Source: Lactobacillus sp. Sy-1 (GTDB lineage Bacteria; Bacillota; Bacilli; Lactobacillales; Lactobacillaceae). From it: a DNA stretch of 64,000 nucleotides. How positions within the stretch are numbered: the first letter of the stretch is position 1; every line of letters starts with the position of its first letter. Under the pieces are notes generated by a model. It was not told the origin of the DNA, ran no database searches, and saw nothing but the letters and a program-made list of their open reading frames with translations. Positions 3,001-19,535 of this stretch are shown one piece after another. Made by a program: the position numbers and the translations under genes. Location of the stretch: NCBI RefSeq assembly GCF_019303535.1, contig NZ_JACCIU010000001.1, positions 434,001 through 498,000 of the forward strand. The letters run 5' to 3'.

Positions 3001-3827
3001 CTAAGATGATTTTTAGCTCTTCAGCTGATTACTCTAACGAAGGGGTATCAGATGCTAAGCGGGGGTCAAAGAAGAACGCTGCTTACGCTGATCAACCAAC
3101 TTATCAAGCTGGCTTTGATGGTTATTCAGCCGGATATAAGAATAAACCTGCCAAGAATGATTTTACTGGCGAAACAACCGCTTATGAAACTGACTATGGA
3201 AAGGCATACCAAGCTGGTCAAAAGGCTTATAAGGCAGAGGTTGCTCGTGGAAAAGCTGCGGCTAAGAAACTTACTAATCCAAAGGCATCATTAGCTGGAA
3301 AATCCGCTGGTTATAAATATGGATATGTGAGTGAGTTTAATGCAAAGCTCAAGCGTCATCCACAATTCGTTTATAATACCAAGGGCATTTACCTGTATAA
3401 GACCGCGTCCTTTACACATGCTGGTCGGATTAAGGGCTATGCTAAGAAAGTACTTGATCGGGCTTCTGAATTTAAGGTTACTAAGATTGCACTATCAAAG
3501 AGCGGCTTAGTTCGTTACTACATTAAGAGCCAGCTATCAAGTAAGGCTGTAAGTGGATACATTACTGCTAATCGTAAGTTTACGGTTAATGCCTACTACA
3601 GCAAGCAAGAAATGGCTACCGCTAAAAGTAAGAAGGTTAAGGTAATCAACTCGAAGGGGATTCAGGTTCACGGTGATAAAAGCTTTAGTTCTAACACTGG
3701 TAAGCACTATCAACGAGGCAAAGAAGTTCGGGTTAGTCGGATTGTTAATTATAAGGGATTAACGCGTTTCTACATTGGTAGTGGTGATTACATTACCAGT
3801 AACAAGAGATTCGTTAAATTCGTTTAA
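1..3827 (+). CDS. Giant Ala/Ser-rich surface protein, C-terminal part only (gene 1)
   Basis: The frame is open from base 3 to the TAA at 3825-3827, so this is the last 1274 or so residues of a protein that starts outside the window. The ATG at 33 lies inside a repeat and is not a real start. About 1000 residues are Ala/Ser/Asn-rich stalk with Ala at heptad positions. Stalk turn motifs begin at 561 (HPKN), 1218 (YPAN), 1881 (NPTY) and about 2598. The first spacings, 657 and 663 bases, match the equivalent place in the next two genes. The last, 717, carries a short insertion, and no amplified 663-base block is present. The stalk ends with RAASDYQTI, as in genes 2 and 3. Then comes a Tyr/Gly-rich linker (about 3030-3350) and two basic DUF5776/SLAP-like repeats (about 3370-3824), ending in KFV. 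No LPXTG or membrane anchor is visible. I infer a wall-bound giant adhesin; the head domain is not seen. Confidence 0.9.
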   Translation, partial: AKSIADSASNVATQASTNASNARSAAMSAKNAADQLASQATSAALNGDSLVADQYNDQANTAANTATAEDNKAQSADYIASAASRSAAAAESSATQASSVASQASAVASSAASDAQSRAASYDAGQSKKRASNASSATNSHASDVAVDKESVASDLANVKLAASAAYDASKAASQAAIATNTQLSAHPKNSIIASANAAAQSASLIAFDALSDAVVASGIVSSASAVVSSAASVIKSAQNAASSIYSLVAVNASNAGDQRLPLASRSDAKSIAAIAADSVAGQERIASIAAADASQAAINGFNAVGRANKDQLIATTASDQANRANVAASSAAANGANNDTSADAATAEANRANSVASVATSDANLNVTLVSQYASQTSASNLIASNTNSDVATVTSTVDSIASAYPANQVIKSTALVANAASATAKSANDDASQANSVAQSAKALAITADGSAKAASEAASSAALLANSYALVAKSYASAGNESSAANANASATAQANSASVAATQAGSASATVVSAISTAATASARAASDAAVVAAAKSAVDLANSTASTAVVNESQAIASASSTNVKAASASAVGTQITSGFNPTTSLVTTAASQTSGTTSQVSSNTVLVNSLASATSIVSAANPTYVAISSAAVVANEAAATANSASADAASANSVAQSAKDVAQSATAVAISASATAQSTAALASSYARVASSYATIGSQSAADSANVQAASLANVASSAAAQTVSESAVASNAAQLAVSASARAASDAVVVSAALSTATSANNAANETVKNKPVSSSSAQPVAVASVATPSSLVNSAAPYASLASSYASYASQAVSLVTVNVSSATQYASAASYSNSETVTPASSAIQLASQVISQGGKSGADESSISYASLASSAAKTILSASADATIANSIASSATSVANSAASVARFAATLANNANVTASSANSAAAVAYSQGNGSAGDSYASIAASAASAAKLATSTVDSATSVNAAATSVASSAASRAASDYQTIVYAAKMIFSSSADYSNEGVSDAKRGSKKNAAYADQPTYQAGFDGYSAGYKNKPAKNDFTGETTAYETDYGKAYQAGQKAYKAEVARGKAAAKKLTNPKASLAGKSAGYKYGYVSEFNAKLKRHPQFVYNTKGIYLYKTASFTHAGRIKGYAKKVLDRASEFKVTKIALSKSGLVRYYIKSQLSSKAVSGYITANRKFTVNAYYSKQEMATAKSKKVKVINSKGIQVHGDKSFSSNTGKHYQRGKEVRVSRIVNYKGLTRFYIGSGDYITSNKRFVKFV
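3030..3824 (+). other. C-terminal wall-binding module of gene 1: Tyr/Gly linker plus two DUF5776/SLAP-like repeats
   Basis: The linker contains spaced Y-x-x-G-[YF] steps (for example FDGYSAGYKNK, YGKAYQAGQKAY, SAGYKYGYVSEF). Two copies of a roughly 70-residue Lys-rich beta unit follow. Each opens with a short beta strand (GIYLYKTASF; GIQVHGDKSF) and closes with the [IV]TxN[RK]K[FL] signature (YITANRKF; YITSNKRF). This resembles the DUF5776/SLAP class of lactobacillus cell-wall binding repeats. The family name comes from recall, not a search. The high Lys content fits binding to anionic wall polymers. Confidence 0.65.
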
Positions 3828-3909: not shown

Positions 3910-3943
3910 AATCAATGATTATCAAATTAGTAAGTGGTAAACT
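3910..3943 (+). promoter_or_regulatory. Promoter of gene 2
   Basis: ATGATT (3915-3920, weak -35), a 17-base spacer, then TAAACT (3938-3943, -10) preceded by TGG as an extended -10. The 16-base string AATCAATGATTATCAA at 3910-3925 is identical to 19628-19643 upstream of gene 3. All three promoters in the window keep the 17-base spacer and an AAGTGRTA core. The predicted leader is only about 34 bases. Confidence 0.7.
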
Positions 3944-3971
3944 TATATTATTAATAATCGTTTATGAACAT

Positions 3972-3978
3972 GGGGGGA
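3972..3978 (+). promoter_or_regulatory. Ribosome binding site of gene 2, fixes the start at 3984
   Basis: GGGGGGA lies five bases before ATG 3984. An in-frame ATG at 3915 is part of the promoter -35 element and has no Shine-Dalgarno, so it cannot be the start. The protein from 3984 begins MLYNKF exactly as genes 3 and 4 do. Confidence 0.9.
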
Positions 3979-3983
3979 TTTGG

Positions 3984-6900
3984 ATGCTTTATAATAAATT
4001 TCAGTTTAATAAAGTAAATGATAAAAAGATACTCCGTAAAGTTAAAAAGCAATGGGTAGTCGTATCACTATCAATGCTATTTTTAATGGGGGGAACTGCA
4101 TTTACCCAGCGGGAAGCACGGGCGGATGCGGACGTTAATGCAAATACTTCACTTTCCCAAGCCGAATCAGCTGGCACGACCACAAATAGTTCAGCAACGA
4201 CGTCAGTTAGCTCAATTGCAGCTAGTGGAAAGGATGCTGATAATGGTACTTCATCGACTTCGGCTACGTTAAGCGGAGTAAGCACATCTAGTAGTCCTTC
4301 CATCACTAGCAGTACCGATTCGAACTCAGTTAGTAGTGTTGTGACCAGCACGAGTGTGAGTGCCTCAAGCAGTAACGCTACCACTGATGTCAAATCAAGT
4401 GTCGCCACTAGTAGTTCGGTAGGTAGTTCTAATAATGCGAGCGCAGCTAGTACTACCACTAGTAGTTCGACAACGAGTAGTGGCACTAGTTCTTCAGCAT
4501 CTGGTACTATCTCAAATGGCACTACCAGCAGTGGGGATGCTAGCGGCAGCGATAGTAAAAGTGGGACCTCCACCGCTACTAGCAGCTCCGCAACCCAGAC
4601 CAGTGGGTTGATCCTATTAAATACCGATAGTGATGGAATTAGTGATCGAATCAATTTGGATGCCGTTAATGATAATAACACGACTGCCACTAATCAAAGC
4701 TCAGTTTATAGCTCTGCATATGCAGCGGCTTATTCTGCTGCGCAAATTGGTTCATCATTTGCCACCAGTGGGAACAGTGATGCAACCTTCTTAAGTGCGG
4801 TTTCAGCAGCACAATCTGCTTATGGCGCCTACGTCAAGGCTTTTAGTGGTGGTTTTACCGCTGCTTCATCTGCAGCAATTGCCGGAACCACCGTCACGAC
4901 TAATTCTTCCATTGGGTATACTAGCGGGATCACTGCTTATTACTCCACAAATGCAGGAGCGGTGGCGGCTTGGAACTCCCTTCATCCTGATGATACCAAG
5001 TCAGCAGACTCTGCTGGTTTGTACAACACCAAGGATGCCTTTTATGTTCAGGGGTACAATGCAACCATCAACGCATTTAATACTTACAGTAGTTTAAATG
5101 CCAGCGCCGGAACTCAATCGGGATCTGCAATCTATGGTTCTGGCGGCCTTGGGCAACAAACTAGCGTTACCAGTGGTTCCGTCAATAAAAACATCTCCGC
5201 CCAGGTTGTTAATTCACCAAGTGATAGTGCTGAGGCTACTTCTGGCAATGATGTGCAGTCTAGTACATCTGGAACGATATCTGGAACGGGAGTGAACGCC
5301 GCTGCTCCTGATCAAAGTTTGGCCTACAATTACGCTGTAGACTATTTTCTGACCCGTCAAGGGACTTACGACGCTGAAACTGGGCGGTGGAATGGAGCGA
5401 CTGCAAGCGGAGCGTACTCCGTCTTGGACACGACTAATAATACTAATAATCCATACATTCAGGCTTACAATGGGGCCCAGGATGCGATTAACAATGAACA
5501 AACTGGCAGTTTCTTTAGCGTTACTAACTTAACTAGTGATCAAAAGAGCAGTACCACTAACAACTACCAGTATGGTTATAATGACGTTGCAAATAAGGTC
5601 AATAACCAAAATATTGCCTTTGTGACTTATAATACTACCAATTCAAATATTGATAAGTTCTTTTCGCGTAGTTACATTAACGGCAATAGTGAGCTTCGGA
5701 TTACTAGCGATTTTAACTATACTGCTTCCACTGGTAACACAGCCGTTGGTGCGAACATGAACATGATTATTAATGGACAAAATCACATCGTTGATTGGCA
5801 ACGGATGCACCAGAATCCATACAACATCAAGAGTTTAACAGTTGAGAACTTTGCTAAGATGTATGGAACTAATGTTTACGGTCCAATTAACCTTTGGAAT
5901 TCTACTTCTGGTAGTTTGACCTACCGAAACATGAACTACGAAGGCTCCCAGTTGTTCTATGGCCCTAGTCTACCCAATCTCTATATTGACGGTGGGGTTA
6001 GTGTTATCAGTGAAGGTAGTTACACGAGTCCGTTCAATACCAATGGCTATAAGACCGACAATAATAATCAACAAAACATCCAGGTTACTAACATGGAATT
6101 ACTCCCTAACTCTTACTACTACGGTAAAACTGAAAAGGGGAATAATATTGAATTAGGGGGCAACCTAGTCTTAGACCAGGGTGCTAGTATGTACTTAGTT
6201 CCCCGTGGTCGTGGCGGTGAAAACGCTAGTGGTGGTGATCGTGGATTAGTAGTGAGTGGGAACGTTAACATCAATAAGGGTGCAAGTCTAACTGCTGCTC
6301 CTGGGGATTCCAGTGCCAATGCGATGATTATTAATTCAGGTGGAACGGTGACAGTCAACGGTGGATCATTAAATTCTATTTACGATTACAATCCGACTGA
6401 TACTGACCCAACCTTAATTCAAGGGAATGTTTATGTTAAAAATGGCGGTAAAATTGTCGTTCACGCGACTACAAACGTTACCAATTTTGGCGGGAACTTG
6501 TTTACCATCGCAAAGGGTGGGTCCCTATCAATTACTAACTTAGCCACTATGCAAATTTATGCTGATGGTGCCAATACCAATAAAAACATGTATTTAATGA
6601 ACAACAGTGGGAACGTTACGATTAGTAACCCTGGAAAATCAGTTATTTTGAGTAAGAATGGCTTAAACAATGACCAAGGTGGGAATGGAGCCGGACGATT
6701 CTTTAATACGACACCAATTACAGCGTATTCAGTTATCGGCCAAGCTAATGACCAAGTTGATAGTCGTCCACAATATATGGTTAAAATCTCTAGTGATGGA
6801 CAGAGTGATTCCAATATCATTACGGTTTGGGATCCGATTAATAATGAAGTTACTGATGAAACGCTAAATAACTTTAATAATTTAACTTACCAATACTTGG

Positions 6901-9900
6901 CGTTTGATGCGGTTCCAACCGTTTATATTAACAGTACGCCCGTTTTGAAGAATGATTCCACAGCTAATTCCAAGTATGACGTCACCACTAATCTACAGTT
7001 GACCAATCTGAACTCCACTGACGGATATGTTTACGTTCGGGTGCAAACGAATGGTCAGGATGAAAAACCAGCCAGTGGGGATAATCCAGCTAATTTTACA
7101 ACTAATAGCAGTGGAATGATAATGGATAGTGATCAACCGACCGGGAATGGAAAAGATGCTGACTATCGGAATGCCTATACAACTGCAATTCCAGTGATTG
7201 CATTTACTAATATTGGTGACGGATTGTATTCATACTCATACTCGCATCAAATTAACGCTACTACCCAAGTGCCAACTGATGTAATCGTAACTGCTCAGTA
7301 TGAAGTTACTAATAATAGTATTGAAGTTAAAAATAATGGTAGCCAAACCCAAATTATCAATAAATCGCATAATCCGGCGTCACCAGGAGCAATTAGTAAT
7401 AGTACGGACTCAACTCCTGGGACGATTACCCAAAACGTGGTGGTTGTTGATAATACAGGCAAGTACAATAGCGTTGCTCAATCCGCAAACACCAGTGCCA
7501 ATGATGTTGCTAACCAGGCGTCAAGTGGGTTAAGTTCATATGCTAGTGTTGCCGATTCTGCTGCAAATACGGTAAGTGGCTATAACTCAACTGCGCAGTC
7601 ATATGCTAATGATTCTGCTACGTTGGCTAAGGATGCTACCTACGCATCATTGGTTAAATCAGCTGCTACTTCAATTAGTAGCTATAGTGTGGATGCTAAC
7701 GTACAGTCATCAATTGCTGACTCCGCGAGTTCAGCCGCCAGTGTTGCAATTGCGAATGCAATGAGTCAAGCCGTTTTAGCATCTTCATATGCATCAATTG
7801 CGGCTAATACAGTGATTCAGTTTAGCAGTGCCAGTAGTGTTTACCCGTTAGCATCGGCCATTTCATTACAAAATTCAGCTAACTCTGCCGCTTCGAGTGC
7901 AGCAAGTAGGGCAACTAGTGTAGCATCATTGGCTACTTCATATTCAAATGTTGCGGCTTCAGCTAATATGACTGGGGCGACAGCGTCTTCAAAAGCATTG
8001 AATGATGAAAAATCAGCTGCTCAAGCAATGGCTTCAATTACAACCGCTTATAATAAACTGCTAGCTGATAACTTTAATTCAATTGCCGCTAGCGCAGTTG
8101 CTTCTGCCACAAGTGCATCCAATGCAGTAGTAAGTGCTGCTACTGGTTCTGTTAACGGGAGTTCTAACGCTTCTAATACTGCCTCCCATTCAGCATTAGC
8201 TAGTGCCGCTGCTTCCACTGCTTCGGATAATAATAATTCCGCGACCTCAGATGCGAATGCTGCCCAATCAACGAACAGTCTGGTCCAATCTGCATTTTCA
8301 AGTAATGCATCGAATTCGGTAGTTTCATCAGCTGCTTCGGTTGCTAATTCCGCGACGACGGTTGCTAGTGATGCTGCTAGTCAAGTAGCCAGTGCAAATT
8401 CGGCTGCCCAATCCGCAAATAGCCGCGCTGCGAATGATAATTCCACTGCTGCTAGTGCCAATGCAGTTGCTTCAAGTGCTACTTCGGCTGCGATTGCTGC
8501 ATCAATCGCTGCTTCTACTGCCGTTTTAAATGGGGATCCATCTGCCGCATCAATTGCCGCAAGTACGGCTGTTTCTGTTGCATCAATTGCAGTTGCCGCA
8601 TCAGTTGCCGCTTCGAATGCGAATGCTGATGCCGCTGCGGCTGCCAATGATGCCACTAATGCTTCTTCAACTGCCGCTAGTGCAACTAGTGTGGCATCCA
8701 GTGCTAACTCATTAGTTCAATCTGCGAATGCGGTTATTAATGCCACTGCTGGGGATGCGCAAAGTGCTGCCAATGAAGCTAACCAGTACGCTAGCAAGGC
8801 ATCGATTAGTGCCAGTCAGGCAAACGACGCCGCTACGAATGCAAGCAGTGGTGCTAATAGTGCTTCTACAATGGCAAGTCAATATGCTAGTGAAACGGCA
8901 CAAACGGCTAGTCAAGCTAGTGGTTTGATGGGTTCAATTAGTACTGCCCAACAAGCTACGAACCAATTGCAAAGTTCTAACCCAAGTAATGCTATCGTTA
9001 GCAGCGCAGTTAGTGTAATTGCTAGTGTTACTACGGCTGCTAATTCTAACGCCGTGATAGAAAGTAACGCTAACGTAGAAGCCCAATCTGCTAGTGCGGT
9101 TGCGAGTGCTAATACCGCTAGTGCTAATGCGGCTGCGCAGGCGGCAAGTACCCAGGCTAGCATTGCTCGTTCAGCAGCTGTTGTTGCTAATGCGGCTGCT
9201 AGTACCGGAGATACCGCTACCGCTAAGAGTGCTGATTCAGTGGCTAAGGATGCTGCCAGTGCCGCAGCTAATTTCAATAGTTCGGCTAGTGCCGCCAGAA
9301 TTAGCGCTCAATCCGCAGCATCAGTTGCTGCTACTGCTAGTACCGTTGCTTCTAACATGGCAGTAGCAATTTCAGCATCTGCAACTGCCGCCAGTCAGGC
9401 TGCTAGTGAAGCTGCTTCAAACGTCAGCCAGGTCAACAGTGACAGTAGCGGGGCTGTTAGTGCAGCTATGAATGCTAATGCTGCTTCCAATACTGCTACT
9501 AGTGTATCTAACGGGGTTGCAAGTAATTCTACAACCGCTTCTAATGCTGCCAACGGGGCTAATGATAGCAATACTGCAACCAGTCAAACGGCGGCTGCCA
9601 CTAGTTCGATCGCCCAAAACGTTAATTCAATGGCAGCCCAAAATGCTGATAATTCAATCATTGCCAGTGCAAATACGGTTGTCAACGGGGCTTCTTCAAC
9701 TGCTCAATCGGCTGCTAGCGCTGCTGCCAGTGCCAATGGTGCCGCTCAGTCAGCTAAGAACCAGGTTGATACTGATAGTTCTACGGCTGCCAGTGCCAAT
9801 GGAGTGGCTAGTTCCGCTGCTGCTGTTGCTCGTAGTGCTAGCCAAGCTGCTAGTGAAGCGGCTGTGAATGGGGATGTTTCTGCTGCATCAGTCGCATTGA

Positions 9901-12900
9901 GTACGGCGATTTCCGCTGCTAGCGTGGCAAATAGTGCTGCGAATGAAGCTACGAATGCCAATTCCGCTGCTTCAACTGCTGCCAGTAACGCTGTAACTCA
10001 ATCTAGTGTTGCCGCCAGCGCCAGTTCAGTTGCGGCAAGTGCTAATTCGGTCGCTAGTGCTACCCAAGCGAGTGCCGCTGCCGTTGTTCAGGCAATTGCG
10101 AACGCGAGTGCCGCCCAAAGCGATGCTAATACGGCTGCTAAGTACGTAACCGCAGCTTCCGTTGCTAATAGTAGCGCTAGTGCGACCGTTCCATCTGCTA
10201 ATTCTAATGCGGTCAATGCTGCTAATAGTGCTTCAGCAACTGCCAGTGATACCGCAGCCCTAAGTTCCACTAATTCAGTAGTAGCTAGCATCGCATCAGC
10301 CAACGCCACTGATTCAGTGGTCGCAAGCATCGCTAGTTCGGTGGCTGCTTATCAATCCGCTGCCGTTAGTGCGAGTGCTGCTGGATCGAACGCTGCTGCT
10401 CAGGCTGCAATTGCAAGTTCGACCGCCAGTTCTGCTGCTCAACAAGCCGCAAGTCAATCCCAAGTAGCTTCCAGTGCGAGTGCTGCTGCACAGTCATACG
10501 CTACCGCTGCCTCCAGTGCGGCTCAAAATGGTGATAGTGCTACGGTTTCAAAAAACGCTAGTCTAGTTAGTTCAGCAATTGCTGTTGCTTCCCAAGCCGC
10601 CATCAATGGGTCTTCCTATGCTAACCAAGTCGTAAGTGCGGCTCAGCAAGCAACGATTGAATCACAGAGTGCCGCAAGTGCTAAAACAGCTACCCAATCA
10701 GCTGCAGATGCGGCTGCTCAATTGCAAGTGAGCCTTGTCAATTCAGTAGCTGCTGTTAACTCGGCTGCGAATAGTGAAGCTAGCGTTGCCCAACCAGTGG
10801 CATCACAAGCTACCAATGATGCTAGTCAAGCTACTGCAGGAACTGCTGATAATTCACAAGCGGTTGATAAGCGTTCTTCAGTTGCTAGTTCAGCTGCCAG
10901 TTCAGCCTCAATGGCTGCTGGAAGTGCCCAGAATGCTGCCACTGGAGCTAGTCAAGCAGCTGCAGAAAACCCAGCTGATTCCACAATTGCAAGCCTTGCT
11001 ACGGTGGCCTCTTCAGCTGCTGTGGTAGCAAGCAGTGCTGCTACGGTTGCCAACCAGGCTTCCCAAACGGCTTGGACGGCATCTTCAACCGCCAATAGTG
11101 CTAATTCAGCTGCGCAAAGTGCTAGTGTTGCTACCAATAGCTACGCGACCGTTGCTTCAGGTGAATCAGTAGCTGCTGCTCAGGCAGCTAGTGCTGGAAA
11201 CATGTCTGCCGCTAAGTCCCATGCTGATGCCGCTTCCAATGCAGCTGCGAGTGCGGCTGCCCAAGCAACCGTTGCAGAAAATGCATCCACTGCAGCCAGT
11301 CAAGCTGCTGTAGACGCTTCCAGTGCTGCATCGTTGGCCCAAAGTGCGAACGATGTTGCCCAATCAGCAAATTCCGTTGCCACAAGTGCTGAAAACGAGG
11401 CGGTTAAGGACAGCCAAGCGAATGCCGCTAGCGCCGCTGCTAATCGTTCTGCAGCTTCTAGTGCTAATTCAGCTGCTCACTCGTACGCTAGTGGGGCTTC
11501 CGTTAGTGTTTCGAATGCTGATGCGGATGATCAACAAGCTGCTAGCGATGTTAATACAACTAGCGTTGCCAATACGGGCGCTAGTCAATCTGCGAGTGCC
11601 GTTAACCAAGTTGCAACTTCAGCGAACTCCGTTGCGAGTGCTAATGCCAGCAATTCGGTGATTAGTAGTGCCGCTGCTAAGGTTAATTCTGCTAATATTG
11701 TAGCTGCCAGTGCCGCTGCTGATGCGGTAACTGCTAACGAACAAGCCGCTGCTGCAATGGTGACAGCGACTACTGCCAGTCACACTGCTAGCGTGCAAAA
11801 TTCACTAGCTCAACAGGCAGCGACTGATGCTTCCATTGCTAGCTCTAAAGCTGACTCTGCATATGCTGCAAAGGACTATGCTGCCGGCAATAGCTACGTT
11901 AATACTGCTATTCAGAATGCCAGCAACGCCCAAGCTGCTAGTCAAGCAGCGAGTGCTGCAGCGAGTGCGATTAAGGCGGCAACTGACTTGGCATCCAGTG
12001 CCGCTGTGCGTGCAACAACAGATTCGCAAACCGCTGCCCAGGCGTCCACTGCTGCATCAAGTGCGGCTGCCGAATTGAATACGGCTGTCTCCACTCAGAA
12101 CAACCAGGTAAGTGCTGCTGATTCCATTGCTAGTGCTGCCGTTGCTGCTAATCGTTCTGCTGCCGTTGCAAGTAATCACGCCGAAACCAACAGTGCGGTT
12201 ACGTCTAGTAACGCCAGTGCCACTAGCTCGCTAGCTTCACAAACTTCCATTGCTGCTAGCCTAGCAAGTTCGCAAGCTTCTGATGCTCACAATGCGGTCA
12301 GCATTGCTAATTCTGCTTTGAACTTGGAACCATCTGCTGATTCGGGCACTAAATCCGCCTTAAGCAGTGATGCTTCTGTAGCTACTGCTGCTGCCAACCA
12401 AGCTGACGCTGCTAATAATAATGCTAGTGCGGCCAACCAGGCTGCAACCAGTGCTAACAATGCTGCTAATTTAGCATCAACTAGTGCCTCAGTTGCCCGT
12501 TCTGCAGCCCAATCGGCAACTACAGCTGCCACTAGTTTTGCTAGCCAAGCAGTTGCCGCAGCGGTAGCTGGGGATAGTTCGGCTGCTGATAGTTATAATC
12601 AACAGGCGCAGACCGCTGCTAATAGCGCTGCAACTCAAAATGCTAGTGCTCAGGCTGCCGATAGTGCTGCTGCAAATGCAAGCATGGTTGCTGCTAACGC
12701 CGTGCAAAGTGCAGAGACTGCCGTAAGCGTTGCCAGTTCAGCTAATTCATTGGCATCCAGCGCTGCATCAGATGCACAATCACGGGTTGCTAGTTATGAT
12801 GCTAACCAGAGCAAGCAACGGGCAAGCAATGCCGCTTCTGCTACCAGTAGCCATAGTGCCGCAATTGCTTCTAACGGTACCGATGTTGCTAGTGATGCGA

Positions 12901-15900
12901 CCACCACTAGCCAGGCCGTTAGTGCAATTTCCCAAACCGTTAGCGCTGCAAACAGTGCTGTAACTGCCACTAATCAGTTAGTTTCTGACCATCCTAAGAA
13001 TGCAGTTATTGCTACTGCTAATTCAACAGCCCAGTCAGCAGCCATAGTAGCAAGTCAAGCTAGTGCAGATGCTAGTTTAGCTAGTCAAATTGTGGCAAGT
13101 GCTTCTACCACCGTTAGTTCCGCTTCTGAAGTAGCTAGTTCTGCTCAAGCTGCTGCGAATGCTGCTAACTACGCGGCCAGTAGTGCTGCTGCAGCTGCTA
13201 GTGATCCAAATCTTTCACCAGCAGCACGGGAAACAGCCAAATCTGCTGCTGCGAATGCTGCAGATCAGGCTGCTGCTCAAGAAAAAGTAGCATCGCAAGC
13301 TGCCAATGATGCTAGTAATGCTGCGAGTGCTGCAGATCAGGCTGCCGCTCGGGCAACGAAGGATCAATCAATTGCTGCTACTGCTGCTCAGCAAGCAAAG
13401 GATGCTCAACAAGCTGCTCAAAATGCTGCGAACGCTGGAAATCAATATGATTCTGCTGCTGATTCAGCAGCTGCAGCTGCTGCTAGCGCGAATGCAACGG
13501 GATCAACTGCTGCAGTTAGTGCGGCCAATGCTTCTAATCAAGCTGATCAGGCAGCTAGTCAAGCCAGTTCATCCACTAGCGTTACCAGTAGTAACAGCGC
13601 CATTATTAGTGGAATCACAAGTACTACCAATAGCATTGCTGCTGCTCACTCAGCAAACCAAGTGATTAGTGCTGCCGCCACCGCTGTTAGTTCAGCGTCA
13701 GTCGTTGCCAGTGCTGCTACTTCCGATGCGGTAGTTGCCAACGATGCTGCACAAAGTGCTAAGGCTACCGCTAGCTCAGCCGTTGTAGTTGCTAATTCTG
13801 CTAGTACAACCGCTAGTTCGGCAAACGTTGCCGCAGCATCTGCAGCATCCGCAGCCAAGAGTTACGCTAGTGAGGGGAATGAGGATTCCGCAGCCAGCGC
13901 CGTTACGGTTGCTTCCATTCAGGCATCAGTCGCCAGTGCCGCTGCTACTTCAGCTGCGCTAGCTTCACAAGCTGCTTCTGCAGCAAACCAAGCTGCATCC
14001 AGTGCCGCTATTCGGGCTGCTAGTGATGCAGTTGTGGCAATCTCTGCCTCAGCTGTAGCTAGTTTTGCCAATTCCGTGGCCAACTCCGCCACATCCGCTG
14101 AACAACAGGCAATCAGCAGCGCCGATGATTCGTCATCAGCTGCAAGCAGTGCCAACACTGTCGCAACGAGTGCCGCTAGTGGCACCAACAGTAATCAAGG
14201 GCAAACTTCTCAAAGTGCAGCCCAAACCAGTTCATCCACTAGCAATGCTGCTAATGATGATCAATCTGCAGCCAGTGATGCTTCCGCAACCAGCAGCGTC
14301 TTCTCTGACCATCCAAAGAACCAGGTAGTTAGTTCCGCTGCATCGGTGGTAAACTCTGCTGCCGCCACCGCCAGCTCCGCTCATTCCGCAGCCAGTGTTG
14401 CCAACTCGACTGCCCAATCAGCTAAGTCAACTGCCGATAGTGCATCTGAATCGGCAAGTGCTGCTAGTTCCGCAGCCAGTGCTGCCAACTCCGCGGCCAG
14501 TTCCGCCGCATCCGCTGCTAAGAGCTACGCTGTTGCCGGGGATAGTGCGAGCGCTGAAAGTGCTAATTCGGTCGCATCATCTGCCGCTGATAGTGCTAAG
14601 GCAGCGCAAAACTCTGCCGCAGCTGCTTCCCAAACTGCTGCTAACGCCAGCCAAGCCGCATCCACTGCCGCTAGTCAAGCTGCCAGTGCTGCAATCGTAG
14701 CTAGTTCCGCAGCGGCAACTGCCAGTTCCGCCAATTCCGTGGCTAACTCCGCAGCTTCCGCTGAACAACAGGCAATCAGCAGCGCTGATGATTCGTCATC
14801 AGCTGCAAGCAGTGCCAACACTGCCGCAACGAGTGCCACTAGTGGCGCTAATGGTGATCAAGTGCAAACTTCTCAAAGTGCGGCTCAAACGAGTTCATCC
14901 ACTAGCAACGCTGCCAACGATGATCAATCAGCATCCAGTGATGCATCTGCAACTAATAGCGTCTTCTCTGACCATCCAAAGAACCAGGTAGTTAGTTCCG
15001 CTGCATCGGTGGTAAACTCTGTTGCCGCCACCGCTGGCTCTGCTCATTCCGCAGCCAGTGTTGCCAACTCGACTGCCCAATCAGCTAAGTCCACTGCCGA
15101 TAGTGCATCTGAATCGGCAAGTGCTGCTAGTTCCGCAGCCAGTGCTGCCAACTCCGCGGCCAGTTCCGCCGCATCCGCAGCCAGGAGCTACGCTTCTGCT
15201 GGGGAAAGTGCTAGTGCCGAAAGCGCTAATTCAGTCGCATCCGCTGCCGCTGATAGTGCTAAGGCAGCGCAAAACTCTGCTGCTGCTGCTTCCCAAACCG
15301 CTGCTAACGCCAGCCAAGTTGCATCCAATGCCGCTAGTCAAGCTGCCAGTGCAGCGACCGTGGCCAGTTCTGCTGCCGCAACTGCCAGTTCCGCTACCTC
15401 AGTTGCTAACTCCGCAGCATCCGCTGAACAACAGGCAATCAGCAGCGCCGATGATTCGTCATCAGCTGCAAGCAGTGCCAACACTGTCGCAATGAGTGCC
15501 GCTAGTGGCACCAACAGTAATCAAGGGCAAACTTCTCAAAGTGCGGCTCAAACGAGTTCATCCACTAGCAATGCTGCTAACGATGATCAATCTGCAGCCA
15601 GTGATGCATCTGCAACTAATGGCGTCTTCTCTGACCATCCAAAGAACCAGGTAGTTAGTTCCGCTGCATCGGTGGTAAACTCTGCTGCCGCCACCGCCAG
15701 CTCCGCTCATTCCGCAGCCAGCGCTGCCAACTCGACTGCCCAATCAGCTAAGTCAACTGCCGATTCAGCATCTGAATCGGCAAGTGCTGCTAGTTCCGCA
15801 GCCAGTGCTGCCAACTCCGCGGCCAGTTCTGCCGCATCCGCTGCCAGGAGCTACGCTTCTGCCGGGGACAGTGCCAGTGCCGAAAGCGCTAATTCAGTCG

Positions 15901-18900
15901 CATCCGCTGCCGCTGATAGTGCTAAGGCAGCGCAAAACTCTGCCGCAGCTGCTTCTCAAACCGCTGCTAACGCCAGCCAAGTTGCATCCAATGCCGCTAG
16001 TCAAGCTGCCGGTGCTGCAATCGTAGCTAGTTCCGCAGCGGCAACTGCCAGTTCCGCTACCTCAGTTGCTAACTCCGCAGCATCCGCTGAACAACAGGCA
16101 ATCAGCAGCGCCGATGATTCGTCATCAGCTGCAAGCAGCGCTAACACTGCCGCAACGAGTGCCGCTAGTGGCACCAACAGTAATCAAGGGCAAACTTCTC
16201 AAAGTGCAGCCCAAACCAGTTCATTCACTAGCAATGCTGCCAACGATGATCAATTCGCATCCAGTGATGCATCTGCAACTAATAGCGTCTTCTCTGATCA
16301 TCCAAAGAATAAGGTAATTAGTTCCGCAGATTCAGTAGTAAACTCTGCTTCCTCAGTTGCTAGCTCTGCTCATTCCGCAGCCAGCGCTGCCAACTCAACC
16401 GCTCAATCAGCTAAGTCAACTGCCGATTCAGCATCTGAATCAGCAAGTGCCGCGAGTTCCGCTGCCAGTTCCGCTAACTCCGTTGCTAGTTCCGCCGCAT
16501 CCGCTGCCAAGAGCTACGCTGTTACCGGGGATAGTGCGAGCGCTGAAAGTGCTAATTCGGTCGCATCAGCTGCCGCTGATAGTGCTAAGGCAGCGCAAAA
16601 CTCTGCCGCAGCTGCTTCCCAAACTGCTGCTAATGCCAGCCAAGTTGCATCTAGTGCGGCTAGTCAAGCCGCCAGTGCCGCGACCGTGGCCAGTTCCGCT
16701 GCCGCAACTGCCAGTTCCGCCAATTCTGTGGCTAGTTCCGCTGCTCAAGATGGTGATCAAGGTGTCGCTATTGCCAGCGCTGCCGTTTCAACCGCAGCCA
16801 GTGCCAATGCTGTCGCATCTAAAGCCGCCAGTGGAGCCGCTAATGACGCTAACCAAGCTGCTAAGTATGCTAGCCAAGCTAATGATTCAACGAGTGCGGC
16901 CCACAGTGATAACTCTGGAGTGGCCAGTGCAACTAGTCAGGCTAATTCCATCTTATCCAGTCATCCCAAGAACCAAGTCGTAAGTTCCGCTGCATCGGTT
17001 GCAGACTCCGCATCATCAGTGGCTAGTTCTGCAACTTCCGATGCAGATATCGCCAATTCACAGGCTGCTGCTGCTAAAGCCGCTGCTAGCGTTGCCGCAA
17101 GTGCTGCCGCTTTAGCTGCTAGTAATGCTGCGGTTGCAAATTCAAATGCGGATGTTGCTGCTTCAGCAGCGCAAAGCTATGCGGATGATGGAGACTCGAC
17201 TTCAGCAGCTAGTGCTAATGCTGTTGCCGCTAGTCAAGCCGCTACTGCCGTTTCAGCTGCTAGTCAAGCTGTTGCTGCTAGCAATGCCGCTAGCGTTGCA
17301 ACTGAATCAGCTTCCAGTGCTTCCGTAAGGGCTGCGAGTGATGCTGCAATCGTAAAGGTGGCCTTATCGACTGCAAATAGCGCTGCATCTGCAGCTCAAT
17401 CAGCTGCGGATGCCCAGAGTAACGCTATTAAGTCTGCTAACTCTGCTAATAGTCAGGCCACTAGCATCAGTAATGCAACTTCAAGTGAAGCTGCAGGGAC
17501 ATCTTCAGCTAATGCCAACACTGCAGCTAATACCAACGCCGTTAATTCGGATAACTCGAATACGCAGTCTAATAATAGTGCTGCTGGCTCTGCCACTGCA
17601 GTTGCTAGTGCAATTGCTTCTGGTGCCCCACAAAACGGAAGTGCGCAGTCCGCTGCAAAGGTTGCAGAATCAGCTAATTCAGTTGCTTCTTCTGCCGCAA
17701 TGGTGGCAAGTAGCGCGAATGCAACTGCGCAAAGTGCTAATCAAGCTGCTAGTGCTGCCAACTCGGTTGCGGCGAGTGCCAATCGTCAGGCAAGTACGGC
17801 GGCTCAATCAGCCCAGTCACTTGCTTCAGCTGTGTCATCCGCTGCTGCTGACGGAAACTCGAGTGCGGTAACGTCACTTAACTCAGCGTTAAGTTCCGCT
17901 ACTTCTGCCATTAATAGCTACTATCATGTTGCTAGTGCTGAAAAGCATAGTGCCCAGTCCGCAGCTAGTGTTGCTGCTAGTGCTCAACAGGTGGCATCCG
18001 CGGCTGCCGTTGTAGCTAGTTCTGCCAATTCAGTTGCGCAAAGTGCAGCTGCATTAGCATATCAAGTGACTCATTTGACTAATCAAGCTAGCCAATACGC
18101 ATCGAATACTGCTGAAATTAATCCAAATGTTTCTCAGGCTGCTATGATTGCTAGTTCGGCAGCTAGTGTTACTACGCAGTATTCAATTGTCGCCAGCAGT
18201 AGTACCTCGCAAACGGCATTCCCAACTAATTCTGCTCAGGAATTAACTAGCCAAGCCATTAGTTTAGCTAGTCAATATCCAGATAACCAATCACTAGCTA
18301 GCTATGCAACAATTGCTAGTTCTGCTTTCATAACGATCTCAGCTGCCTCTGCCGATGCAGTAATCGCTAACCAAATTGCAGGGGCGGCCACTGCAGTTGC
18401 TAACAGTGCAGCAACTGCGGCTGCCTCTGCCGCTCGGATTGCGAACTATACGGTCGCTGCTGTTAACTCTGCTAATTCAGCAGCAGCTGCTGCTTATAAT
18501 CGGGGAGATGCCGCGTTAGGCGATAGTTACGCCCACGAGGCTTCAATCGCAGCTACTGGTGCAGCGAGTGCGAATGCAGACGTTGAACGTTATAACTCCA
18601 TTGCAGTTTCTGCTGCATCGATGGCAAGTGCTGCTGCTGCTCGTGCTGCTAGTGATTATCAAACGATTATTTTAGCGGCTAAGGTAGTCTTCAGTGCTAA
18701 TTCTGCGGCTACCTCAGCTGCCGCTAGTGCTGGAAACTTCTATCAAGATGGGTTAAACGATGCTAAGGCCAAAGTTAAACGTGATCCGCAAATGGCAAGT
18801 CAGCCAACCTATCAAGCTGCTTATGATGGTTATCAAGATGGGTTCAACCACCGGACAGCGAAGACGAACTTTGCTGGACAGACGGCGGTTTATCGGAATG

Positions 18901-19535
18901 ATTACGCTAAGGCTTACCAGGTAGGACATGCTGACTATATTAAGGAAGTTGCCCTAGGGCGTGCCGCTGCTAAGAATGCAGGGCGCTATGCTGATGCATC
19001 ATTAGTTGATCGTTCGGTTGGTTACCGTGATGGGTACGTTAAGAAGTTCAACGCGCGGCTAAAGAAAGCACCGTTATATATTTACAATACGAAGAGTCTC
19101 TATCTACACACCAAGGCTGATTTTGGTAAGGGGAAGCGGGTTAAGGGCTACGCTAAGCAACCCCAAAACCAAATTCATGAGTTTAAGGTGCTAGGAATTA
19201 CCGTTAATAAGCGGGGCTTGGTTCGCTACTATGTCAAGGGACACCTAGCCGATCAAACGGTTAAGGGCTACATGACTGCTAATCGTGATTACATTAAACA
19301 GGCGTATTACGATAAGCATGATATGCAGAAAGCACAAGCAACCGTTAAGGTAATTAGTAAGAAGGGGATTCGAGTGCATGATCGGACTACTTTTGATACG
19401 AAGGATGGTAAATATTACCAACCAGGAACTAAGTTAACGGTTACCAAAGTAGTTAACTACAAGGGACTAACTAGGTTTGAAATATCAAATGGTGGTTACA
19501 TTACCAGTAATAAAAAGCTAGTTCAATTGATTTAA
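3984..19535 (+). CDS. Giant beta-solenoid/helical-stalk adhesin, 5183 aa (gene 2)
   Basis: Domains in order (residues approximate): 1-49 secretion leader with a basic n-region (KKILRKVKKQW), hydrophobic core and likely cleavage near RADAD; 50-210 Ser/Thr/Ala-rich; 210-225 a DSDGISD calcium-loop-like motif found only in this paralog; 240-330 two copies of the 45-residue Ala/Ser/Gly repeat; 525-970 pectate-lyase-like adhesive beta-solenoid; 975-1115 Ig-like beta domain; 1150-4910 Ala/Ser/Asn helical stalk; 4915-5183 Tyr/Gly linker and two DUF5776/SLAP-like repeats. The stalk has 16 turn motifs from 8304 to 18276, with six consecutive spacings of exactly 663 bases from 13647 to 17625. I saw no cysteine and no LPXTG. 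It has its own promoter and terminator. The likely role is secretion, perhaps by SecA2/SecY2 as for other KxYKxGKxW proteins, and display of an adhesive tip on a long stalk. Ligand unknown. Confidence 0.92.
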   Translation: MLYNKFQFNKVNDKKILRKVKKQWVVVSLSMLFLMGGTAFTQREARADADVNANTSLSQAESAGTTTNSSATTSVSSIAASGKDADNGTSSTSATLSGVSTSSSPSITSSTDSNSVSSVVTSTSVSASSSNATTDVKSSVATSSSVGSSNNASAASTTTSSSTTSSGTSSSASGTISNGTTSSGDASGSDSKSGTSTATSSSATQTSGLILLNTDSDGISDRINLDAVNDNNTTATNQSSVYSSAYAAAYSAAQIGSSFATSGNSDATFLSAVSAAQSAYGAYVKAFSGGFTAASSAAIAGTTVTTNSSIGYTSGITAYYSTNAGAVAAWNSLHPDDTKSADSAGLYNTKDAFYVQGYNATINAFNTYSSLNASAGTQSGSAIYGSGGLGQQTSVTSGSVNKNISAQVVNSPSDSAEATSGNDVQSSTSGTISGTGVNAAAPDQSLAYNYAVDYFLTRQGTYDAETGRWNGATASGAYSVLDTTNNTNNPYIQAYNGAQDAINNEQTGSFFSVTNLTSDQKSSTTNNYQYGYNDVANKVNNQNIAFVTYNTTNSNIDKFFSRSYINGNSELRITSDFNYTASTGNTAVGANMNMIINGQNHIVDWQRMHQNPYNIKSLTVENFAKMYGTNVYGPINLWNSTSGSLTYRNMNYEGSQLFYGPSLPNLYIDGGVSVISEGSYTSPFNTNGYKTDNNNQQNIQVTNMELLPNSYYYGKTEKGNNIELGGNLVLDQGASMYLVPRGRGGENASGGDRGLVVSGNVNINKGASLTAAPGDSSANAMIINSGGTVTVNGGSLNSIYDYNPTDTDPTLIQGNVYVKNGGKIVVHATTNVTNFGGNLFTIAKGGSLSITNLATMQIYADGANTNKNMYLMNNSGNVTISNPGKSVILSKNGLNNDQGGNGAGRFFNTTPITAYSVIGQANDQVDSRPQYMVKISSDGQSDSNIITVWDPINNEVTDETLNNFNNLTYQYLAFDAVPTVYINSTPVLKNDSTANSKYDVTTNLQLTNLNSTDGYVYVRVQTNGQDEKPASGDNPANFTTNSSGMIMDSDQPTGNGKDADYRNAYTTAIPVIAFTNIGDGLYSYSYSHQINATTQVPTDVIVTAQYEVTNNSIEVKNNGSQTQIINKSHNPASPGAISNSTDSTPGTITQNVVVVDNTGKYNSVAQSANTSANDVANQASSGLSSYASVADSAANTVSGYNSTAQSYANDSATLAKDATYASLVKSAATSISSYSVDANVQSSIADSASSAASVAIANAMSQAVLASSYASIAANTVIQFSSASSVYPLASAISLQNSANSAASSAASRATSVASLATSYSNVAASANMTGATASSKALNDEKSAAQAMASITTAYNKLLADNFNSIAASAVASATSASNAVVSAATGSVNGSSNASNTASHSALASAAASTASDNNNSATSDANAAQSTNSLVQSAFSSNASNSVVSSAASVANSATTVASDAASQVASANSAAQSANSRAANDNSTAASANAVASSATSAAIAASIAASTAVLNGDPSAASIAASTAVSVASIAVAASVAASNANADAAAAANDATNASSTAASATSVASSANSLVQSANAVINATAGDAQSAANEANQYASKASISASQANDAATNASSGANSASTMASQYASETAQTASQASGLMGSISTAQQATNQLQSSNPSNAIVSSAVSVIASVTTAANSNAVIESNANVEAQSASAVASANTASANAAAQAASTQASIARSAAVVANAAASTGDTATAKSADSVAKDAASAAANFNSSASAARISAQSAASVAATASTVASNMAVAISASATAASQAASEAASNVSQVNSDSSGAVSAAMNANAASNTATSVSNGVASNSTTASNAANGANDSNTATSQTAAATSSIAQNVNSMAAQNADNSIIASANTVVNGASSTAQSAASAAASANGAAQSAKNQVDTDSSTAASANGVASSAAAVARSASQAASEAAVNGDVSAASVALSTAISAASVANSAANEATNANSAASTAASNAVTQSSVAASASSVAASANSVASATQASAAAVVQAIANASAAQSDANTAAKYVTAASVANSSASATVPSANSNAVNAANSASATASDTAALSSTNSVVASIASANATDSVVASIASSVAAYQSAAVSASAAGSNAAAQAAIASSTASSAAQQAASQSQVASSASAAAQSYATAASSAAQNGDSATVSKNASLVSSAIAVASQAAINGSSYANQVVSAAQQATIESQSAASAKTATQSAADAAAQLQVSLVNSVAAVNSAANSEASVAQPVASQATNDASQATAGTADNSQAVDKRSSVASSAASSASMAAGSAQNAATGASQAAAENPADSTIASLATVASSAAVVASSAATVANQASQTAWTASSTANSANSAAQSASVATNSYATVASGESVAAAQAASAGNMSAAKSHADAASNAAASAAAQATVAENASTAASQAAVDASSAASLAQSANDVAQSANSVATSAENEAVKDSQANAASAAANRSAASSANSAAHSYASGASVSVSNADADDQQAASDVNTTSVANTGASQSASAVNQVATSANSVASANASNSVISSAAAKVNSANIVAASAAADAVTANEQAAAAMVTATTASHTASVQNSLAQQAATDASIASSKADSAYAAKDYAAGNSYVNTAIQNASNAQAASQAASAAASAIKAATDLASSAAVRATTDSQTAAQASTAASSAAAELNTAVSTQNNQVSAADSIASAAVAANRSAAVASNHAETNSAVTSSNASATSSLASQTSIAASLASSQASDAHNAVSIANSALNLEPSADSGTKSALSSDASVATAAANQADAANNNASAANQAATSANNAANLASTSASVARSAAQSATTAATSFASQAVAAAVAGDSSAADSYNQQAQTAANSAATQNASAQAADSAAANASMVAANAVQSAETAVSVASSANSLASSAASDAQSRVASYDANQSKQRASNAASATSSHSAAIASNGTDVASDATTTSQAVSAISQTVSAANSAVTATNQLVSDHPKNAVIATANSTAQSAAIVASQASADASLASQIVASASTTVSSASEVASSAQAAANAANYAASSAAAAASDPNLSPAARETAKSAAANAADQAAAQEKVASQAANDASNAASAADQAAARATKDQSIAATAAQQAKDAQQAAQNAANAGNQYDSAADSAAAAAASANATGSTAAVSAANASNQADQAASQASSSTSVTSSNSAIISGITSTTNSIAAAHSANQVISAAATAVSSASVVASAATSDAVVANDAAQSAKATASSAVVVANSASTTASSANVAAASAASAAKSYASEGNEDSAASAVTVASIQASVASAAATSAALASQAASAANQAASSAAIRAASDAVVAISASAVASFANSVANSATSAEQQAISSADDSSSAASSANTVATSAASGTNSNQGQTSQSAAQTSSSTSNAANDDQSAASDASATSSVFSDHPKNQVVSSAASVVNSAAATASSAHSAASVANSTAQSAKSTADSASESASAASSAASAANSAASSAASAAKSYAVAGDSASAESANSVASSAADSAKAAQNSAAAASQTAANASQAASTAASQAASAAIVASSAAATASSANSVANSAASAEQQAISSADDSSSAASSANTAATSATSGANGDQVQTSQSAAQTSSSTSNAANDDQSASSDASATNSVFSDHPKNQVVSSAASVVNSVAATAGSAHSAASVANSTAQSAKSTADSASESASAASSAASAANSAASSAASAARSYASAGESASAESANSVASAAADSAKAAQNSAAAASQTAANASQVASNAASQAASAATVASSAAATASSATSVANSAASAEQQAISSADDSSSAASSANTVAMSAASGTNSNQGQTSQSAAQTSSSTSNAANDDQSAASDASATNGVFSDHPKNQVVSSAASVVNSAAATASSAHSAASAANSTAQSAKSTADSASESASAASSAASAANSAASSAASAARSYASAGDSASAESANSVASAAADSAKAAQNSAAAASQTAANASQVASNAASQAAGAAIVASSAAATASSATSVANSAASAEQQAISSADDSSSAASSANTAATSAASGTNSNQGQTSQSAAQTSSFTSNAANDDQFASSDASATNSVFSDHPKNKVISSADSVVNSASSVASSAHSAASAANSTAQSAKSTADSASESASAASSAASSANSVASSAASAAKSYAVTGDSASAESANSVASAAADSAKAAQNSAAAASQTAANASQVASSAASQAASAATVASSAAATASSANSVASSAAQDGDQGVAIASAAVSTAASANAVASKAASGAANDANQAAKYASQANDSTSAAHSDNSGVASATSQANSILSSHPKNQVVSSAASVADSASSVASSATSDADIANSQAAAAKAAASVAASAAALAASNAAVANSNADVAASAAQSYADDGDSTSAASANAVAASQAATAVSAASQAVAASNAASVATESASSASVRAASDAAIVKVALSTANSAASAAQSAADAQSNAIKSANSANSQATSISNATSSEAAGTSSANANTAANTNAVNSDNSNTQSNNSAAGSATAVASAIASGAPQNGSAQSAAKVAESANSVASSAAMVASSANATAQSANQAASAANSVAASANRQASTAAQSAQSLASAVSSAAADGNSSAVTSLNSALSSATSAINSYYHVASAEKHSAQSAASVAASAQQVASAAAVVASSANSVAQSAAALAYQVTHLTNQASQYASNTAEINPNVSQAAMIASSAASVTTQYSIVASSSTSQTAFPTNSAQELTSQAISLASQYPDNQSLASYATIASSAFITISAASADAVIANQIAGAATAVANSAATAAASAARIANYTVAAVNSANSAAAAAYNRGDAALGDSYAHEASIAATGAASANADVERYNSIAVSAASMASAAAARAASDYQTIILAAKVVFSANSAATSAAASAGNFYQDGLNDAKAKVKRDPQMASQPTYQAAYDGYQDGFNHRTAKTNFAGQTAVYRNDYAKAYQVGHADYIKEVALGRAAAKNAGRYADASLVDRSVGYRDGYVKKFNARLKKAPLYIYNTKSLYLHTKADFGKGKRVKGYAKQPQNQIHEFKVLGITVNKRGLVRYYVKGHLADQTVKGYMTANRDYIKQAYYDKHDMQKAQATVKVISKKGIRVHDRTTFDTKDGKYYQPGTKLTVTKVVNYKGLTRFEISNGGYITSNKKLVQLI
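4609..4680 (+). other. Calcium-loop-like DxDGxxD motif, present only in gene 2
   Basis: NTDSDGISDRINLD matches the DxDxDGxxD spacing of thrombospondin type 3 and dockerin calcium loops, except that the first acidic residue is Asn. It sits between the Ser/Thr-rich segment and the first 45-residue repeat. Genes 3 and 4 have no equivalent. One loop is weak evidence for calcium binding. Confidence 0.45.
5560..7340 (+). other. Adhesive head of gene 2: pectate-lyase-like beta-solenoid plus Ig-like domain
   Basis: The sequence changes from Ala/Ser-rich to Asn/Gly/Val/Tyr-rich with repeating short beta rungs (for example MNMIINGQNHIVD, GSLTYRNMNYEGSQLFYG, TVTVNGGSL, NVTISNPG). The NGQNH, YEGSQL and IDGxVxxxSE blocks are characteristic of the pectate-lyase-like adhesive domain of lactobacillus surface proteins (recalled as Pfam Pectate_lyase_5). 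From about 6911 an Ig-like domain follows, with VPTVYI, GYVYVRV and a DYRNAYT-AIPV block, all matched in genes 3 and 4. Confidence 0.7.
8304..18710 (+). repeat. Helical stalk of gene 2: 16 super-repeat units of about 221 residues
   Basis: The turn motif codon (H, Y, N or E before P-x-N or its variant) starts at 8304, 8979, 9642, 10302, 10968, 11643, 12327, 12990, 13647, 14310, 14973, 15636, 16299, 16962, 17625 and 18276. Spacings are 675, 663, 660, 666, 675, 684, 663, 657, six times 663, then 651. In the unit at 14973, core positions 7 to 73 step 3-4-3-4 and are Ala except Val at 7, 14, 17 and Tyr at 73. A GE/GD turn lies near 77. A second run at 82-148 is all Ala, followed by a shorter third segment with a Gly-rich kink near 179. 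Confidence 0.9.
14067..16741 (+). repeat. Four near-identical 663-base tandem copies inside the gene 2 stalk
   Basis: From the GCCAATTCCGTGGC segment at 14067 the sequence recurs almost unchanged at 14730, 15393 and 16056, and again at 16719, just before it diverges near 16741. The junctions lie in the second helix of the unit, not at the HPKN turn. This marks the recombination register. Copies keep the same frame and length and differ by scattered, often synonymous, substitutions. Confidence 0.88.
18735..19532 (+). other. C-terminal wall-binding module of gene 2
   Basis: A Tyr/Gly-step linker (NFYQDGLNDAK, AAYDGYQDGFNHR, SVGYRDGYVKKF) is followed by two Lys-rich repeats beginning SLYLHTKADF and GIRVHDRTTF and ending YMTANRDY and YITSNKKL. 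The order and spacing equal those in genes 1 and 3. I read it as non-covalent cell-wall attachment by DUF5776/SLAP-like repeats. Confidence 0.65.

What the first reader, a model, noticed from the sequence alone, without database searches (positions are those of the whole stretch)
10302..18276. Paralogs share the same series of unit lengths and differ by whole 663-base units
From 10302 in gene 2 the spacings read 666, 675, 684, 663, 657, six times 663, 651. From 36312 in gene 3 they read 666, 675, 684, 663, 657, eight times 663, 651. Gene 1 retains the 657 and 663 steps. The distal stalk is thus collinear between genes, and copy number of one unit type is the variable. This behaves like a length ruler tuned by unequal crossing over.
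Basis: seen in the sequence. Interest (0 to 1): 0.85.

Follow-up and report, generated by a model that had tools for sequence, protein, structure and literature searches.

The report
Giant adhesin stalks with variable-copy module
A lactic acid bacterium carries a row of enormous surface proteins whose stalks are built from about 221-residue blocks in a fixed order inherited since before its species split, with one internal block copied anywhere from once to 43 times, which probably sets how far each protein reaches from the cell.

Summary
All listed spacings in window genes 2 and 3 fall on the same motif. These genes, their neighbours and a second species encode tandem series of about 221-aa Ala/Ser-rich, predicted helical modules.

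Modules p1-p5 (666, 675, 684, 663, 657 bp) each form one clade (support 99-100) across eight genes of two species. All 39 have their best foreign match at the same position, better than any module of their own gene. The terminal module and the last 663-bp module are also positional.

Between p5 and that last module, copies mostly resemble others of their own gene, so they expanded separately: 1, 6, 8 and 2 copies here, 1-43 in the relative. Expansion borders lie inside modules, in register, as homologous tandem duplication or unequal exchange predicts.

Corrections: other parts of the stalk also change by whole modules, and the block is wall-proximal, not distal.

The proteins match Apilactobacillus kunkeei Giant1-3 in head fold and C-terminal domain, and resemble periscope proteins. 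Length tuning is likely but untested.

The parts
561..1880 (+). gA (gene 1): module p5 (561-1217, 657 bp) and one 663-bp module (1218-1880)
1881..3827 (+). gA: 239-aa module related to the variable type instead of the usual 217-aa terminal module, last module and C-terminal region
3915..19535 (+). gB (gene 2): giant surface protein, 5206 aa
10302..13646 (+). gB positional modules p1-p5 (666, 675, 684, 663, 657 bp)
   Evidence: each position one clade
13647..16961 (+). gB variable block, five 663-bp modules v1-v5; homogeneous tract about 14070-16713, borders inside v1 and v5
16962..18275 (+). gB last 663-bp module vL (16962-17624, positional) and terminal 651-bp module t (17625-18275)
19329..19523 (+). 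gB C-terminal DUF5776 (PF19087), likely cell-wall binding
   Evidence: E 1e-14, above gathering score
19740..46880 (+). gC (gene 3): giant surface protein, 9046 aa
20988..23609 (+). gC head, beta-solenoid over its confident part
   Evidence: model; best PDB match L. reuteri SRRP 5ny0
29043..36311 (+). gC positional modules q1-q11, shared with gA and the G001 gene at C2:639303
36312..39656 (+). gC positional modules p1-p5
39657..44297 (+). gC variable block, seven 663-bp modules v1-v7; homogeneous tract begins inside p5 at about 39477
44298..45611 (+). gC last 663-bp module vL (44298-44960) and terminal 651-bp module t (44961-45611)
46677..46868 (+). gC C-terminal DUF5776
   Evidence: E 2.9e-11
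47086..64000 (+). gD (gene 4): giant surface protein, 8798 aa, runs past the window to 73482; its p1-p5 and two 663-bp modules lie beyond the window
55018..62931 (+). gD: two copies of a six-module higher-order repeat (about 3.96 kb each); a third copy follows

Best explanation
The genes encode a cluster of giant, secreted, wall-bound adhesins with a beta-solenoid head, a long stalk of head-to-tail ~221-aa Ala/Ser-rich helical modules and a C-terminal DUF5776 (SH3b-like) anchor. SHOWN: the order and length of most stalk modules predates the gene duplications and the split of two species, because modules at the same position are each other's relatives. SHOWN: a block of exactly 663-bp modules between p5 and the last two fixed modules has been multiplied separately in each gene, giving 1 to 43 copies. 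SHOWN: the multiplied tracts have borders inside modules, in register, and the copies align without indels. INFERRED: copies are gained and lost by homologous tandem duplication or unequal exchange between neighbouring modules, with some sequence exchange between neighbouring genes. INFERRED: each module is a stiff rod of about 10 nm, probably a three-helix bundle. Adding modules at the wall-proximal base then pushes a head on an otherwise unchanged stalk further out. That length is the selected property is the least certain step.
For: Motif and spacing exact; segmentation; run shared far beyond shuffles. Positional clades p1-p5, t, vL and nearest-neighbour counts 39/39 and 33/33. Copies in the block group by gene. 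Borders inside modules at matching phase. Zero gaps in 23 three-module stretches at 53-89% identity to the first. In the p1-p5 tree the 8-copy gC is sister to the 43-copy gene of the other species. Recent whole-module tandem duplications elsewhere and a gA/gC shared tract. DUF5776 at the C-termini; SRRP-like head. Helical model; heptad alanine period 3.5 and turn-residue peaks near 1-5, 77 and 153.
Against: Only one genome per species was available, so present-day change in copy number was not seen. The closest copies in the window's 663-bp blocks differ at dS 0.18-0.38, so they are not now turning over quickly. The module model has only moderate confidence (pLDDT 72.7, pTM 0.45) and does not show a packed bundle. 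Other stalk parts also vary, so the 663-bp block is not a sole length control.
Confidence: 0.72

Rival explanations
1. The matching unit lengths reflect a physical constraint on helical modules (independent convergence on favoured lengths), not common descent.
For: Exact 221-aa periods also occur in a giant of another genus (G110), and copies of the block align without gaps, so some lengths are clearly favoured.
Against: Each position is one sequence clade with support 99-100 and all 39 p modules match their own position best. Convergence on length would not produce this. Constraint may still act on top of descent.
Confidence: 0.06
2. The stalks vary in length, but module number is neutral: arrays drift by duplication and loss, and the modules serve another role such as glycan display, shielding, aggregation or ligand binding along the stalk.
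For: Serine and alanine make up over half of gene 3's protein. Heads, stalks and tails recombine freely. No strain or functional data tie length to a trait.
Against: dN/dS about 0.1-0.3 between close copies and the absence of gaps show constraint on the modules, though not on their number. Two genes in two species keep the same series while only the block expands, which drift alone does not predict.
Confidence: 0.3
3. The copy numbers are assembly artefacts of collapsed or expanded repeats.
For: The relative's cluster has frameshifts, including one inside the 43-copy array. The gA two-module repeat upstream of the window is 99% identical and could be mis-assembled.
Against: In gB and gC, neighbouring copies differ by 6-51% in DNA and the frame is open throughout. 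Collapse would merge near-identical copies, not these.
Confidence: 0.05
4. Copies arise by replication slippage or gene conversion rather than unequal crossing over.
For: A 1330-bp gA/gC tract at 94.7% identity fits conversion between paralogs; slippage cannot be excluded from one genome.
Against: Units of 663-3315 bp are long for slippage, and conversion alone does not change copy number. Published views of periscope proteins favour homologous recombination (PMC9704523).
Confidence: 0.2

Closest known systems
Apilactobacillus kunkeei Giant1-3 (PMC12863079)
   Same: Cluster of consecutive genes for proteins of thousands of residues; SRRP-like beta-solenoid head; long helical-repeat stalk; C-terminal DUF5776 / SH3b-like anchor; recombination among giants. 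Head profile finds relatives inside 5-8 thousand-residue frames of another genus whose sizes fit Apilactobacillus (genus unnamed here).
   Different: Stalk module 221 aa here, against repeats of 62, 103 and 366 aa reported there, and periods of 105 and 188 aa in the likely Apilactobacillus genome read here. Positional module series and a variable block are not described in that paper (terms searched). Larger share of the genome, 11.9% against 6%.
Periscope proteins (SasG, Rib, Sgo_0707; PMC8201768, PMC9704523)
   Same: Head, variable-length stalk of tandem modules, wall attachment; proposed length change by homologous recombination.
   Different: Modules are helical and about 221 aa; the variable block sits inside a series of distinct positional modules; variation seen between paralogs and species, not yet between strains; only some copies exceed 80% identity.
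L. reuteri CmbA intragenic macrosatellite (PMC13339910)
   Same: Intragenic tandem repeats in a lactobacillar wall adhesin with different copy number in two strains (11 and 8).
   Different: Identical repeats of about 290 bp in a protein of about 160 kDa; no positional series.
L. reuteri serine-rich repeat proteins (SRRP)
   Same: Head fold: best PDB match 5ny0 (E 5.8e-4, 17% identity).
   Different: Stalk of Ala/Ser-rich helical modules and DUF5776 end; accessory Sec not examined.

Membership tests
A. kunkeei Giant1-3 family | Consecutive genes for extracellular proteins of 3,000-8,000 aa | tested here: met
   Five consecutive genes of 8179, 8711, 5206, 9046 and 8798 codons
A. kunkeei Giant1-3 family | N-terminal beta-solenoid domain resembling SRRP | tested here: met
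   Model confident over the solenoid part; top PDB matches 5ny0 and 5nxk
A. kunkeei Giant1-3 family | C-terminal DUF5776 / SH3b-like domain | tested here: met
   PF19087 above gathering score in gB and gC; one copy detected, two to four reported there
A. kunkeei Giant1-3 family | Sec signal peptide | tested here: inconclusive
   KxYKxGKxW signal model matches below its cut-off
A. kunkeei Giant1-3 family | Stalk of parallel alpha-helical repeats | tested here: inconclusive
   Predicted helical, moderate confidence; repeat length differs
Periscope proteins | Tandem repeats over 50 residues with at least 80% identity | tested here: met
   gB v2-v4 92-94%, gC v1-v4 mostly 84-90% DNA identity; most other modules fall below
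Periscope proteins | Repeat number varies between strains of a species | not testable with these tools
   One genome per species held; variation seen only between paralogs and between two species
Periscope proteins | Rod-like stalk with module ends at opposite poles, projecting an N-terminal functional domain | not testable with these tools
   Three-helix geometry inferred, not resolved by the model
SRRP | Accessory Sec (SecA2/SecY2) export genes nearby | not tested
   Not searched for

The most novel reading that the evidence does not exclude
These stalks have an addressed design: most module positions have a conserved identity and exact length, and both species use a dedicated wall-proximal insertion site to set reach. 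The paralogs, with 1 to 43 copies, would then form a graded brush of heads at different heights on one cell.
Probability: 0.25. Interest if true: 0.72.

Novelty: new variant of a known kind. Interest (0 to 1): 0.52.

Why it matters
Variable-length bacterial adhesins are mostly known as blocks of near-identical repeats, in which history is erased. Here the expanding block is framed by modules with readable positions in many paralogs and two species. Where modules were gained, how far an expansion runs and which parts of the stalk are held fixed can therefore be read directly. The cluster is also a natural series of stalks carrying 1-43 copies, mostly with related heads, for testing whether length itself matters. 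The same roughly 221-aa module in other Lactobacillaceae genera suggests a wider stalk domain that has no Pfam or NCBIfam entry.

Tried and rejected
Low-complexity artefact: rejected, since identity at a lag of 663 bp rises to 85-100% with clear borders, and a shuffled sequence fits the module profile far worse. Naming the organism: two scans of genome contigs found no relative; Xylocopilactobacillus was considered but its genomes of 2.27-2.31 Mb do not fit. Foldseek of the module model found nothing at E 0.001 or below; the best-shaped matches are elongated helical trypanosome receptors, not significant. No PDB sequence relative of module or head at a meaningful E-value.

Full report
WHAT WAS CLAIMED AND WHETHER IT IS THERE. 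Every point they generate is in frame and begins the same motif. A separate segmentation, looping a 221-residue profile along each protein with gaps allowed, returned the same lengths without being given them. The order is far from chance: the runs shared by gB and gC (5 steps) and by gA and gC (12 steps) were reached in 0 of 2000 shuffles each.

CONTEXT. The window is G000:C1:434001-498000 of a 2.04-Mb genome. It lies in a cluster of five consecutive giant genes of 8179, 8711, 5206, 9046 and 8798 codons. A sister species (G001) has the same cluster between the same flanking genes, partly broken by frameshifts. Both species have further giants next to the pyrimidine genes: 13,648 aa here, 16,836 and 14,123 aa there. 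The giant genes read here make up 241.6 kb, 11.9% of this genome.

ANATOMY. gB, gC and gD have a KxYKxGKxW-like N-terminus (below the Pfam cut-off), and gB and gC end in DUF5776. The head model is a beta-solenoid over its confident part, and its best PDB match is the L. reuteri SRRP binding region. The stalk modules are predicted helical (moderate confidence). Across 316 modules, turn-forming residues peak at positions 1-5, 76-80 and 151-155. Alanine repeats every 3.5 residues in each of the three segments between them, and length differences cluster around the second and third peaks and in the last segment. I infer an elongated three-helix bundle of about 65-71 residues per helix, roughly 10 nm per module. 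This geometry is not shown.

HISTORY OF THE MODULES. A tree of 98 modules from nine genes and two species puts p1, p2, p3, p4 and p5 each on one branch with support 99-100. The terminal module t does the same except in gA, and the last 663-bp module (vL) forms one clade from eight genes (99). All 39 p modules have their best foreign match at the same position and above any module of their own gene. All 33 q modules (q1-q11 in gA, gC and the G001 gene at 639303) are likewise closer to another gene.

THE VARIABLE BLOCK. Between p5 and vL the copies behave differently. gB v1-v5 form one clade (99), gC v1-v5 another (88), and 45 of 64 modules labelled v are closest to a copy in their own gene. Copy numbers including vL are gA 1 (without a typical vL), gB 6, gC 8 and gD 2; in the other species they are 1, 1, 3, 10 and 43. 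The last comes from 28,507 bp = 43 x 663 - 2, the 2 bp being a frameshift. In the p1-p5 tree the 8-copy gC is sister to the 43-copy gene (98/96). Twenty-three three-module stretches, 53-89% identical to the first, align without one gap.

MECHANISM OF CHANGE. In gB the tract of high identity at a lag of 663 bp starts about 423 bp into v1 and ends about as far into v5; in gC it starts inside p5. Borders inside modules at matching phase are what in-register tandem duplication or unequal homologous exchange leaves, not insertion of ready-made modules. Synonymous divergence between the closest copies is 0.18-0.23 in gB and about 0.38 in gC, with dN/dS about 0.1-0.3, so the block looks old and constrained rather than hypervariable. 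Recent events of the same kind exist elsewhere: 1353 bp in gA (99.2%), 699 bp in gD (97.8%), 3315 bp = 5 x 663 in the pyr-locus giant (96.1%), and a 1330-bp tract shared by gA and gC (94.7%). Heads, stalks and tails give different trees, so the genes also seem to exchange pieces.

The block is wall-proximal if the C-terminus carries the anchor, so adding modules would raise everything above it. Copy number of one module is not the only variable. gB is shorter than gC by about 17 modules, of which two are in the block.

COMPARISON. The head, anchor, gene cluster and helical stalk match A. kunkeei Giant1-3 (PMC12863079). The likely Apilactobacillus genome read here shows stalk periods of 105 and 188 aa instead of 221. 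The length principle matches periscope proteins (PMC8201768), whose strain-variation criterion I could not test. A 221-aa period with eight successive 221-aa units occurs in another genus (G110), and 210-213 aa periods in others, so the module is not confined to this genus.

LIMITS. One genome per species; unnamed organism; repeats in assemblies can be miscounted; function not tested. That copy number is selected for reach is an inference by analogy and position.

Noticed in passing
26783-28111 (gC) and G000:C1:419644-420972 (gA): A 1330-bp tract is 94.7% identical between paralogs gA and gC, far above the rest of their stalks, as recent exchange or conversion would leave.
   Followed up: partly
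54088-55460 (gD): A 674-bp stretch is repeated at a spacing of 699 bp with 97.8% identity: a recent single-module duplication next to the gD higher-order repeat.
   Followed up: partly
G000:C1:411692-437827 (gA), head: gA's head is far from the heads of its neighbours and matches Pectate_lyase_5 (PF20585), although its stalk series is the same as gC's.
   Followed up: partly
G000:C1:1111012-1151958 and G001:C2:1346984-1440152: Giants of 13,648, 16,836 and 14,123 aa sit beside pyrB-pyrC-carA-carB genes; the first holds three copies of a five-module, 3315-bp repeat.
   Followed up: partly
G001:C2:571167-688809 (L017-L023): Several giants of the sister species are split by frameshifts; whether these are sequencing errors or real was not settled.
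   Followed up: no
G000:C1:386946-411485 and G001:C2:571167-599624: The first gene of the cluster has a different variable block: alternating 216- and 214-aa modules (430-aa dimer), with more dimers in the sister species.
   Followed up: partly
L069 (G201:C69), L070 (G110:C44), L071 (G110:C41): Other Lactobacillaceae genera encode stalks with 221-, 213- or 210-aa periods, some running off contig ends, so such genes may often be truncated in draft assemblies.
   Followed up: partly
G000 contig C2 (447 kb) and G001 contig C1: Both species have a second large contig besides the 1.6-1.7-Mb one; in G000 it carries a 9996-aa giant. It may be a second replicon.
   Followed up: no
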